Source: Acidobacteriota bacterium (lineage in GTDB: Bacteria; Acidobacteriota; Terriglobia; Terriglobales; SCQP01). From it: a stretch of DNA of 64,000 bases. The DNA lies in NCBI GenBank assembly GCA_021818955.1, contig JAKASR010000014.1, positions 1 to 64,000 on the forward strand, in the 5' to 3' direction. The notes beneath the pieces are model-generated. The model made no database searches. It saw nothing but the letters and a program-made list of their open reading frames with translations, and was not told where the DNA came from. Positions 4,024-14,829 of the stretch are shown here, piece by piece; position 1 is the first letter of the stretch; every line of letters begins with the position of its first letter. A program made the position numbers and the translations under genes.

Positions 4024-5052
4024 TTATTGCCGCGCCAGCATCTGCAACGTCTGCATCACGGTTCGCCCGACGACGCGGAAGCTGTGCGGGCTGAGTTTAT
4101 CCATGGTATCCCGCGGCGAATGCCACCAGCGGCCGAAGACGTTCCGATTGCCCGGCCCGTATGTGGCGTCGATTAAATCCACCGACGGAATGCCGACATG
4201 CAGAAATGCCAGATGGTCGTCTTCAATGGCGATGGAATTCTGAAAAAAGTACTTGGAATAGCCCAATTTTTCCGCCGCAGAGGCGACAAAATCATTGATC
4301 CATTGCGTCGATTGCGTTTCCCGCCCGATGTCGAGGTTTTTGTCGCCGATCATATCCACCAGAATCAGCGCATGGATGCGCGGCGCGACGCCTTGCGTCC
4401 GCCAGAGCGCGGCCAGTTGCCGGCTGCCATAAGTGCCATCGGTACGCGTCCAATGCACCACGTCTTCCTCGCCGTCTAAAAACACCACCCAGACGGGCAC
4501 CTGCAACGGATGCTTCGCCAGCACCGCCGCGGCTTCCAGCGGCAGACCGGTGCTGGAGCCGCCGTCATTGGCGCCGACAAAGTGGAATTTTTCGATTTTG
4601 GTGTCGTAATGCCCGCACAGCACCAGAATTTGACCGGTGCGCGGCCCGAATTTGGCGATGATATTGTTCTCCGGCATGGGGCCTTTAGGAGTATGCGCGG
4701 TAAAGCGGTCCTGCACGATGCGGGCGTGATCCTGGCGCAGATTGGCGAGGATATAGGCGACCATGCGGCGATGCGCCGCCGAGCCTGGCGGCCGCGGCCC
4801 GAAATCCACCACCGCGCGCGTGTAGGCGTAGGCTTGCCGCCCGCTGAAGGCATTGGCGAGCGATACGGCCGGCGAGGCATGCGTTTGCGCCGCCGCCGGT
4901 TTGGACGCCGCCGCCGCATGCGCGATCGCCGCCGGCACGCGATGGCCGTCCGTGGCTGATCCGGTCGCGGGAGCGCGGCCTGAAGCGCAACTTGAAAACG
5001 GCGCCAGCATCAAAGCGGCCATTCCCAGGGCAAAGAACATGCGTGAGATCAT
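4024..5052 (-). CDS. M28-family peptidase, glutaminyl-peptide cyclotransferase type
   Basis: A 342-residue exported protein with a hydrophobic N-terminus ending at FSSC (Cys22), possibly a lipoprotein. The zinc-binding pattern of the M28 family is visible: GHYD (His148), the ANDGGSS aspartate (Asp163), the DGEED acidic pair (about 195-196) and a later DDH. The segment after DGEED, with TDGTYGSRQLAALW, resembles animal glutaminyl cyclase rather than aminopeptidases. It probably cyclises N-terminal glutamine to pyroglutamate on exported proteins, or acts as an aminopeptidase. It converges on the lipoprotein gene and leaves only a short gap. Confidence 0.8.
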   Translation of the reverse strand: MISRMFFALGMAALMLAPFSSCASGRAPATGSATDGHRVPAAIAHAAAASKPAAAQTHASPAVSLANAFSGRQAYAYTRAVVDFGPRPPGSAAHRRMVAYILANLRQDHARIVQDRFTAHTPKGPMPENNIIAKFGPRTGQILVLCGHYDTKIEKFHFVGANDGGSSTGLPLEAAAVLAKHPLQVPVWVVFLDGEEDVVHWTRTDGTYGSRQLAALWRTQGVAPRIHALILVDMIGDKNLDIGRETQSTQWINDFVASAAEKLGYSKYFFQNSIAIEDDHLAFLHVGIPSVDLIDATYGPGNRNVFGRWWHSPRDTMDKLSPHSFRVVGRTVMQTLQMLARQ

Positions 5053-5226
5053 CTGGCCTCATTCTAACTTGTCTGTATTTTGCCCGCACGCTTCATGCAG
5101 CCGGGCGCAATGCCCGCGGCTGAACTTATAAAAACGCCGGGGCTCCAGCCGCACGGGCAGCCTTTGGGCTTGCAATCCCACTGTATTTATGTTTTGCTAC
5201 ATAACGCTGAATGCTGGAGGCGCGCC

Positions 5227-5769
5227 ATGGCCATGCGCTGCAAACTCTTTTCACTCGCGTTATGCCTTTTCCTCTTGCCGGGCTTATGCGCAACCCGCGC
5301 TTCCGCGGCGCAGCCCAAGCTGGCGCTCATCACCGCCCCAAAACGGCTGAAGAGCACGGTGCCGGGCAGTTTCTATCTGGAAGGCGACGCCATTCCGGTG
5401 GAAATGTATCATGCCGTCTTGCTGCAAGCCGGACGCAAGCAGTTCATTATCGCGCTGCTGGCCACCAGCGGCTACAGCTCCAATGTCCGGCAAAAATATC
5501 TGGGCATGATCATTTCCGAGGGCCGCTTTCGCCTGAACACCCTGCGGCTGGGCATTGGCAGTTACGGTTTCGGCCTGGCGACGATTCATCAGAACGGAAA
5601 GACGAAAACCGTATTGCGCCTCTTCAACCAGGCCGGCCGCCAAGTCGGACAAAGCCCGGTGCGCTGGGATAGCCATATGGCGCATCCCTCGCCCATTCAA
5701 GCGGCGCCGGGCAAAAGCGGTTCCGTCCGCATTTATTTGGGACGCCATTGGCTAAGGCTGCGGCCGTAA
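5227..5769 (+). CDS. Small exported protein of unknown function
   Basis: 180 residues. I start it at the ATG at 5227, which has GGAGG 7 bp upstream and begins directly with a clear Sec signal peptide ending near ARASA. The frame is open further upstream, but that part looks non-coding. The mature part is basic and beta-rich (repeated aromatic/hydrophobic alternation, no cysteines). I recognise no family. It ends 11 bp before the convergent acetate kinase gene. Confidence 0.65.
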   Translation: MAMRCKLFSLALCLFLLPGLCATRASAAQPKLALITAPKRLKSTVPGSFYLEGDAIPVEMYHAVLLQAGRKQFIIALLATSGYSSNVRQKYLGMIISEGRFRLNTLRLGIGSYGFGLATIHQNGKTKTVLRLFNQAGRQVGQSPVRWDSHMAHPSPIQAAPGKSGSVRIYLGRHWLRLRP

Positions 5770-13426: not shown

Positions 13427-14398
13427 TTAAGGGCGCGGCGGTTGCAGGCTGCCATAACCGGGCATATACACGATCCAGCCATATCGGGGAGTAGCCTGCA
13501 CACGCGCGGCCACTAACTGGCGCTGGTATTCGCGTAAAAAGAAATCCAAAGGGCCGCGCGCCGCGGCGTTGATTATTTCCAAATCTGCGGGGCGCAAGAT
13601 GGTATGGCCCAAATGCAACTCGCCTCCGCGATAGATCATGTATCCGCGGCGCGCCAGCGGCGATGGAACCGCGAGCGGCGGCGACGCCAGCCCCGAGCCC
13701 GCCCGAGCCGAACCCAACCGCAACCACAAGCGGCGTCCGATGCGGATTTTGAGCACTCTACCCAGCACATGCGGCGCCGGCAGCGCGACCGCGGGATCGA
13801 GAATGAGATCGCCATTTTGCAGCCGCAGGCCGCGGGTTTTCTTCTGGTTGATAAAGTCGCCGATATTCAACCCCACCAGATGCATCAATCCGCCCATGGG
13901 GAGATGCAGCGCCCGGATGCGCGTAGGGTGAAAGCGGATTTTTCCCAAACGGGTCGGGCGCATGGTTCCGGTCAGTTCCGCCGGCAGGGCGATGCCTTGA
14001 TGAATGGTTCCCCGCTCGATCAGCTTGCCTTGCTTGAATTCAACCCGAATGTGGGTAAAGCCGGCGCCGGGACGCCCAAACACATAAGCGTTCATCAGCC
14101 GCGCCAGGCTGGCGGCGCTCATGGCGACGCGCGCCGAGGAAATCGCTATCTGAAACGAGCGTGGATTATCAAAACTGATGTACGCGCCTTGGCGCGCCGG
14201 CAGTAACGCACCGTGGATGTAATCCACATAAAGCAGCAGGCGACGGTCGAACCGATAATTGACATTGCGAATCGTGGTTTGGACGGGTTTGGCGGACAGG
14301 TTCGCAACCTGCCCGGCTGGGGCGCATGCCGCCGCAGCAGCGCCCCAGCCCGCGGTTGCGATCAACGCCGCGGCCATTTCCATGCGCAAAGATTTCAT
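13427..14398 (-). CDS. Exported protein of unknown function (cupredoxin-linked)
   Basis: 323 residues. I start it at the ATG at 14398, directly ahead of the signal peptide (MKSLRMEMAAALIATAGWG). The mature protein is basic and beta-rich, with a repeated theme of short hydrophobic strands around RIRALHLPMGGLMHLVG. It has the feel of a lipid-binding LmeA/DUF2993-like fold, but I cannot name a family. It begins 17 bp after the CuA-like cupredoxin gene, so both are likely on one mRNA and may work on the outer side of the membrane. Confidence 0.6.
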   Translation of the reverse strand: MKSLRMEMAAALIATAGWGAAAAACAPAGQVANLSAKPVQTTIRNVNYRFDRRLLLYVDYIHGALLPARQGAYISFDNPRSFQIAISSARVAMSAASLARLMNAYVFGRPGAGFTHIRVEFKQGKLIERGTIHQGIALPAELTGTMRPTRLGKIRFHPTRIRALHLPMGGLMHLVGLNIGDFINQKKTRGLRLQNGDLILDPAVALPAPHVLGRVLKIRIGRRLWLRLGSARAGSGLASPPLAVPSPLARRGYMIYRGGELHLGHTILRPADLEIINAAARGPLDFFLREYQRQLVAARVQATPRYGWIVYMPGYGSLQPPRP

Positions 14399-14415: not shown

Positions 14416-14829
14416 TCAGGGATGAGCCGTTGCTTGCGCCGGCGCGGCAGGCGCGATGATCAGCTTCCCGGTCATCCAGAAATGGAACAGCCCGCAAAAA
14501 TGCGAGCAGCGAATCCGGTATATACCGGGATGATCGGTGGGAATGGGAATCTGCACCGGACGTCCCCGGGGCAGCATTACGTTGACGCCCAGCGAAGGGA
14601 TACTGAAGCCATGCGCACGATCGAGCGAAGTCACGACGAGCACGGCATGCTCCCCCTGGCGCACGCGTATAGGGTTGGGGGTGTAATGATATTTCCGGGC
14701 GGTAACCTGAATTTCACGCAGCGAGGCGGCGATTGCGTCATGGGGCAGGAAAGCAGATCGCAAACGCAGATTGCCCGGCATGGCGGACAATAAAAGCAAG
14801 AGCAGGCAGGCCAGACCGCGCGCGGGCAT
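14416..14829 (-). CDS. Small exported cupredoxin with a CuA-like site
   Basis: 137 residues with a Sec signal and one cupredoxin domain resembling the soluble part of cytochrome oxidase subunit II. The ligands follow CuA spacing: His73, then Cys108, Cys112, His116 and Met119. The residue between the two cysteines, normally a glutamate giving a backbone ligand (C-x-E-x-C), is His110 here. There are no transmembrane helices of true subunit II and no oxidase genes nearby. It is probably a dedicated electron or copper carrier, like stand-alone Sco/CuA-type or nitrous-oxide-related domains. It is first in a two-gene unit. Confidence 0.75.
   Translation of the reverse strand: MPARGLACLLLLLLSAMPGNLRLRSAFLPHDAIAASLREIQVTARKYHYTPNPIRVRQGEHAVLVVTSLDRAHGFSIPSLGVNVMLPRGRPVQIPIPTDHPGIYRIRCSHFCGLFHFWMTGKLIIAPAAPAQATAHP

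What the first reader, a model, noticed from the sequence alone, without database searches (positions are those of the whole stretch)
14416..14829. CuA-like cupredoxin with histidine in place of the conserved glutamate
Ligand spacing (Cys108, Cys112, His116, Met119, plus His73) is exactly that of CuA, but the residue between the cysteines is His110 instead of Glu. In CuA that glutamate binds a copper through its backbone, so a side-chain imidazole there could alter the site or its redox potential. The protein lacks the oxidase helices and is paired with an unknown exported protein.
Basis: partly seen in the sequence, partly recalled or inferred. Interest (0 to 1): 0.55.

Follow-up and report, generated by a model that had tools for sequence, protein, structure and literature searches.

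The report
Stand-alone CuA-type copper protein

Summary
The gene is real: 137 aa on the MINUS strand (14829 to 14416), with H73, C108, H110, C112, H116 and M119 as described. It meets the published CuA motif Hx34Cx3Cx3Hx2M exactly. AlphaFold and Foldseek place it on the CuA domain of Thermus ba3 oxidase (rmsd 0.9 Å over 88 columns, 36% identity). The key interpretation does not hold: Glu between the cysteines is not a general CuA feature. That residue binds copper by its main-chain carbonyl. It is Gln in Thermus CuA, Trp in N2O reductase, and His in one published haloarchaeal NosZ. Glu's side chain serves the oxidase Mg site, which a stand-alone protein lacks. In 85 stand-alone sequences (this one included) the position is V31 R16 H14 E9 I7 K4 F2 S1 Q1. 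On a tree of 89 rows His needs at least 7 changes. This genome's own two oxidase-type subunits II carry Gln and Val there. The 'unknown exported partner' lies beside it only in this genus; elsewhere the cupredoxin is often followed directly by an ORF with a haem motif (28 of 43). Best reading: a periplasmic CuA electron carrier, new member of a known kind. Copper binding was not tested.

The parts
14416..14829 (-). Single-domain CuA-like cupredoxin, 137 aa (P0001); hydrophobic N-terminus (export inferred, no signal predictor run), domain about residues 38-127
14473..14508 (-). Ligand loop C108-S-H110-F-C112-G-L-F-H116-F-W-M119
   Evidence: read directly
14611..14613 (-). Codon of upstream ligand His73 (34 residues before C108)
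14500..14502 (-). Codon (CAT) of His110, the residue between the cysteines
13427..14398 (-). Downstream protein P0002 (323 aa), 17 bp after the cupredoxin stop; no Pfam or NCBIfam family; only weak resemblance to lipid-binding folds

Best explanation
It is a small exported, single-domain CuA-type cupredoxin that carries electrons in the periplasm. Two copper ions would be held by C108 and C112 (bridging), H73 and M119 on one copper, and H116 plus the main-chain C=O of residue 110 on the other. His110 contributes its backbone carbonyl as Gln, Trp or Glu do in known CuA sites; its side chain is free to vary because a stand-alone protein has no oxidase subunit I with which to build the Mg site. 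Shown here: the complete ligand motif, the fold prediction, wide stand-alone relatives, and the variability and scatter of His at this position. Inferred: copper binding, the carbonyl contact in this protein, electron transfer, export to the periplasm and any redox partner.
For: Motif Hx34Cx3Cx3Hx2M met exactly (motif from PMC6189053, passages). PF00116 and PF13473 above cut-off. Closest solved sequences are Thermus CuA and chimeras on it (6ptt E 4.7e-15, 2cua E 1.8e-13). Model pLDDT block means 96-98 over residues 41-130; Foldseek top hit 2cua_A, E 8.7e-11, rmsd 0.9 Å over 88 columns; VIA Z 15.2 to 2cua_B over 94 residues, rmsd 1.3. In 45 aligned sequences D70, H73, G102, C108, C112, G113, H116 and M119 are invariant, residue 110 is not. 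Position 110 in 85 stand-alone sequences, window included: V31 R16 H14 E9 I7 K4 F2 S1 Q1. Tree of 89 rows: His at least 7 changes, all states 25. Published contacts: main-chain C=O of Glu198 to Cu and its carboxyl to Mg (PMC10598403, passages); C=O of Trp616 in N2OR (PMC11573801, passages). The 2lln sequence has Gln aligned to H110. In relatives, 28 of 43 directly following co-directional ORFs hold CxxCH, against 0 of 52 ORFs of this window; Pfam names cytochrome c (3) or di-haem oxidoreductase (2) in the 5 of those 28 that were scanned and listed one by one. The genome has one SCO1/SenC match; that this family assembles CuA is general knowledge.
Against: No metal was measured. The window gene has no cytochrome neighbour; the eight neighbours scanned include phosphoketolase, GH5 cellulase and transporters. 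Its place on the tree is weak (only the genus pair is starred), and its loop (G-L-F-H-F-W-M) lacks the G-x-G-H found in 70 of 85 sequences. Six fetched relatives lack the strict motif and the Janthinobacterium plasmid relative lacks the first Cys, so the wider family is not uniformly a CuA family. Cupredoxins with other copper sites also match the fold well (Bacillus Cupredoxin_1 Z 14.6, nitrosocyanin Z 13.8). Of the 14 His-type sequences only one (L007) is directly followed by a CxxCH ORF.
Confidence: 0.77

Rival explanations
1. One reading: the His110 imidazole binds or strongly perturbs a copper, giving a new variant of the CuA site with changed potential.
For: His is kept in the two same-genus sequences and throughout most of one branch, CDH[FY]CG (10 of 12 rows); imidazole is a good copper ligand (general knowledge).
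Against: The position is V, R, E, I, K, F, S or Q in 71 of 85 sequences with the same ligands. In solved sites the contact is the main-chain carbonyl. His is scattered on the tree.
Confidence: 0.06
2. It holds a single copper or other metal and works as a copper-handling protein (chaperone, store, sensor) rather than as an electron carrier.
For: The fold also matches Bacillus Cupredoxin_1, CupA and nitrosocyanin; no redox partner gene is adjacent; one plasmid relative (Ilyobacter) sits among multicopper oxidase, cation transporter and heavy-metal sensor genes.
Against: All five side-chain ligands of a binuclear site are present with exact spacing, and the top-ranked structures are CuA.
Confidence: 0.13
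3. A detached oxidase subunit II domain with no function, drifting.
For: No oxidase genes among the eight neighbours scanned; no measured function.
Against: Intact, with an upstream GAGG ribosome-site-like sequence, retained in a second genome of the genus with identical ligand loop at 66% identity.
Confidence: 0.04

Closest known systems
[quoted passage not shown] 2lln, its organism recalled)
   Same: Fold (rmsd 0.9 Å over 88 columns, 36% identity), all five side-chain ligands and their spacing; non-Glu residue (Gln) between the cysteines
   Different: Thermus domain is tethered to an oxidase; here one N-terminal hydrophobic stretch only and no oxidase genes among the neighbours; His instead of Gln
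C-terminal CuA domain of nitrous oxide reductase (NosZ)
   Same: CuA motif; aromatic residue (Trp; His in Halorubrum aidingense per PMC8301774) between the cysteines; contact by main-chain carbonyl
   Different: No N-terminal beta-propeller or CuZ; NCBIfam NosZ models only far below cut-off
Stand-alone cupredoxin-domain proteins of this phylum and of some plasmids
   Same: Single domain with the same invariant residues; several have His between the cysteines (e.g. CDHFCG, CSHFCG, CTHYCG)
   Different: Many are followed by a c-type cytochrome or di-haem oxidoreductase gene; here the next gene is P0002 and the loop is rich in aromatic residues
PmoD/AmoD
   Same: Cupredoxin-fold protein outside an oxidase that makes a CuA-type centre (PMC6189053, passages)
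   Different: PmoD forms the site between two monomers with another ligand set and lacks the canonical motif

Membership tests
CuA-type cupredoxin domain | Motif Hx34Cx3Cx3Hx2M | tested here: met
   motif as stated in PMC6189053
CuA-type cupredoxin domain | Cupredoxin fold closest to solved CuA domains | tested here: met
   (predicted model)
CuA-type cupredoxin domain | Sequence model PF00116 above its cut-off | tested here: met
   39.6 bits against 22
CuA-type cupredoxin domain | Binuclear mixed-valence copper | not testable with these tools
   needs purified protein
CuA-type cupredoxin domain | Axial main-chain carbonyl from the residue between the cysteines | not testable with these tools
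   any residue can supply it; model coordinates not available here
Cytochrome c oxidase subunit II | Full-length subunit; TIGR02866 cut-off | tested here: not met
   137 aa in all, one hydrophobic stretch upstream of the domain; TIGR02866 39.8 bits against 147.7
Cytochrome c oxidase subunit II | Linked to subunit I genes | tested here: not met
   eight neighbours scanned, none an oxidase gene
Cytochrome c oxidase subunit II | Glu between the cysteines bridging CuA and Mg (bovine Glu198) | tested here: not met
   His110; this genome's own two subunit-II-like genes also lack Glu (Gln, Val)
Nitrous oxide reductase NosZ | N-terminal propeller and full-length model score | tested here: not met
   TIGR04246 45.6 bits against 625, only profile positions 486-578 matched
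Nitrosocyanin (mononuclear red copper) | TIGR03096 cut-off | tested here: not met
   12.2 bits against 142.85

The most novel reading that the evidence does not exclude
The genus has a distinct CuA variant in which His110 and an aromatic-rich loop (F115, F117, W118) make a pH-tuned or differently ligated copper site, working with the neighbouring, possibly lipid-binding P0002 at the cell envelope instead of with a cytochrome.
Probability: 0.05. Interest if true: 0.5.

Novelty: new member of a known kind. Interest (0 to 1): 0.15.

Why it matters
It removes a false lead (a supposed Glu-to-His change in a conserved CuA site) and replaces it with a general point: in the stand-alone CuA-like cupredoxins sampled here the residue between the cysteines is free to vary, as expected if Glu is held in oxidases by the Mg site rather than by copper. 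It also points to a large set of small CuA-like proteins, many encoded beside c-type cytochromes, for which the literature searches made here showed no functional study.

Tried and rejected
His110 as a rare novelty: rejected on the counts. Viral relatives: 52 stretches matched a pattern and none was confirmed by tblastn. The genome-contig scan with four close sequences gave only 3 loci; one is a contig of the same length (58673) as the same-genus contig G001:C75, which I take to be the same record. P0002: no family; of 11 aligned members one matched AsmA at 3.7e-4 and one an HU domain at 4.5e-3; Foldseek gave no hit at E 0.001 or below. VIA's list holds YceB (Z 5.3), CETP (4.6), LBP, BPI, P47 and SPLUNC1; that these belong to the TULIP superfamily is recalled, and Z under 8 is not evidence of kinship. 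Literature: search listings, and passages from eight papers. PMC7480511 and PMC8239418 gave nothing used; PMC6696091, PMC11573801, PMC6189053, PMC10194837, PMC10598403 and PMC8301774 did. No functional study of stand-alone canonical-motif CuA proteins turned up. The library holds open-licence papers only, so this does not show that none exists.

How the counts were made. 85 non-redundant stand-alone sequences with the motif (window included) came from loci. Six His rows (L049, L050, L055-L058) bear labels of the His-pattern search, which would bias the count; but the same six places were also returned by the profile search (fetched there or), so they stay in. Without them the count is 79: V31 R16 E9 H8 I7 K4 F2 S1 Q1. 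Left out: six loci without the strict motif (L103, L105, L112, L118, L123, L135); L093, whose first Cys is replaced; L046, L047 and L059, which carry His (CSHTCG) but have a long insert, so no His falls in the tested range; L051, a chance hit in a 19-residue frame; L001, L002 and L048, subunit-II-like, kept in the tree only. The sequences are the better-scoring matches to this protein or to a profile of 8 sequences, 5 of them with His, so the proportions describe this sample and not all such proteins. The 45-row alignment behind the model holds 10 His rows. P0002's adjacency was read by eye from the rows listed; one search's list was cut short, so unlisted weak matches were not checked; in G060 the two lie about 6 kb apart on opposite strands. 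The cytochrome control (0 of 52) used ORFs of at least 90 aa of one window, the neighbours ORFs of at least 70 aa of other genomes, so it is a rough one.

Full report
What is there. The reading frame is on the minus strand, 14829 to 14416, 137 aa. It has a hydrophobic N-terminus, from which export is inferred, and from about residue 38 a cupredoxin domain. H73 to C108, C108 to C112, C112 to H116 and H116 to M119 are spaced by 34, 3, 3 and 2 residues, which is the published CuA motif Hx34Cx3Cx3Hx2M (PMC6189053, passages). It is the only such motif in six frames of the window. Pfam's COX2 and Cupredoxin_1 models both pass their cut-offs. NCBIfam models of NosZ, CoxB and nitrosocyanin match only far below theirs. 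The best solved relatives by sequence are Thermus CuA and chimeras made on it.

Structure. An AlphaFold model from 45 aligned sequences has block means of 96 to 98 pLDDT over residues 41-130. Foldseek's first hit in the PDB is the Thermus CuA domain (2cua_A, E 8.7e-11, rmsd 0.9 Å, 88 columns, 36% identity). VIA-align gives Z 15.5 for a human-loop chimera on that domain (6pty) and 15.2 for 2cua_B. Other cupredoxins (Bacillus Cupredoxin_1 Z 14.6, nitrosocyanin 13.8) are not far behind, so the fold alone does not prove a binuclear site; the ligand set argues for it.

The histidine. In the solved CuA sites described in the passages seen, the residue between the cysteines touches copper through its main-chain carbonyl. 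In bovine oxidase, Glu198 does so while its carboxyl group binds the Mg ion (PMC10598403, passages; also PMC10194837, passages). In N2O reductase the carbonyl is that of Trp616 (PMC11573801, passages). In the 2lln sequence the aligned residue is Gln. [quoted passage not shown] So Glu goes with the oxidase Mg site, not with CuA as such. The two subunit-II-like genes of this same genome have Gln (CSQLCG) and Val (CTVYCG) there.

Relatives. Of 100 related genomes (own included), 91 have a match to the protein at E 1e-5, many of them in long frames that are probably oxidase subunits. Among 297 genomes of the phylum (own included), 13 hold the DNA pattern for C-x-H-x-C-G-x2-H-x2-M, with one match of the reversed control; one of the 13 (G018, locus L051) is a chance frame, and in three the match lies in a protein with a long insert. 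A profile search gave matches in 216 of 297. From the fetched loci I took 85 non-redundant stand-alone sequences with the motif, the window's own included: V31 R16 H14 E9 I7 K4 F2 S1 Q1. Leaving out the six labelled by the His-pattern search, though the profile search returned them too, gives 79 with 8 His. The exact 34-residue spacing holds in 62 of 85; 22 of the other 23 have 35 or 36. In the 45-row alignment D70, H73, G102, C108, C112, G113, H116 and M119 are invariant, while position 110 is neither invariant nor nearly so. On a tree built without that residue, His needs at least 7 changes and all states 25, over 89 rows. Many forks of that tree are open and starred branches alone force only 2 changes for His, so the exact number is soft; most His rows (10 of 15) lie in one branch, the others apart from it.

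Context. Neighbours on the window are phosphoketolase, a GH5 cellulase, an MFS transporter, EamA, an enolase-superfamily enzyme, GNAT, MazG and a PGA_cap protein: no oxidase or cytochrome genes, and no ORF of the window's 52 holds CxxCH. The gene 17 bp downstream, P0002, has no family. Homologues are found in 28 of 100 genomes, own included. In the rows listed it lies beside the cupredoxin only in this genome and in the other genome of the genus. The pairing is therefore a genus-level arrangement and weak evidence of joint function. Elsewhere in the phylum the stand-alone cupredoxin is often followed directly by a cytochrome: 43 of 84 loci have a co-directional ORF directly downstream and 28 of these hold CxxCH. 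Pfam names cytochrome c or di-haem oxidoreductase in the five listed one by one. One of the 28 has His between the cysteines (L007). No member of the His-rich CDH[FY]CG branch is directly followed by such an ORF; one (L058) has a CxxCH ORF 743 bp away on the other strand, and two (L055, L056) have a calcineurin-like phosphoesterase gene next door.

Reading. The simplest account is a small exported CuA electron carrier. Copper binding, redox role and partner are inferred. The claim that His110 makes a new kind of site has no support here, though the aromatic-rich loop of this genus (G-L-F-H-F-W-M) is unusual within the sample and could shape partner docking or potential. New member of a known kind; interest low.

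Noticed in passing
loci L012, L014, L015, L017, L019, L020, L022, L025, L028-L032, L087, L088, L091, L100, L109: In this phylum the stand-alone CuA-like cupredoxin is followed directly by an ORF with a haem-binding CxxCH motif (cytochrome c by Pfam in L012 and L029); calcineurin-like phosphoesterases also recur among the neighbouring ORFs (7 of 85 scanned).
   Followed up: partly
loci L108, L121, L122, L124, L127, L128, L132: Another group (CSRPCGAGHTMM, CNRMCGAGHNFM and the like) is followed by an ORF of 401-426 aa with two CxxCH motifs; the two scanned (L108, L121) match the di-haem oxidoreductase family PF06537, a putative peroxidase and possible redox partner.
   Followed up: partly
window 13427-14398 (-): P0002 belongs to a family seen in 28 of 100 genomes (own included) with no Pfam or NCBIfam match to the window member; its predicted fold weakly resembles YceB, CETP, BPI and other lipid-binding proteins (best Z 5.3).
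   Followed up: partly
L046, L047, L059: In three genomes of one genus (G109, G147, G135) a CSHTCGFMHPFM cupredoxin has a long insert before the ligand loop and, by eye, a C-terminal hydrophobic stretch: possibly a membrane-anchored His variant.
   Followed up: no
L103, L105, L112, L118, L123, L135: Relatives of the cupredoxin that depart from the CuA motif (e.g. Met replaced by Leu, or Gly or the second Cys lost), suggesting changed or lost metal sites.
   Followed up: no
L093 (Janthinobacterium lividum plasmid), 4848-5291: A relative encoded next to a c-type cytochrome gene has Ala in place of the first Cys (ATIFCGSGHEEM), leaving a one-Cys set like that of mononuclear copper sites.
   Followed up: no
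L094 (Ilyobacter polytropus plasmid pILYOP02): A stand-alone CuA-like cupredoxin (CSVPCGSGHKAM) on a plasmid typed as conjugative, among multicopper oxidase, cation transporter and heavy-metal sensor genes.
   Followed up: no
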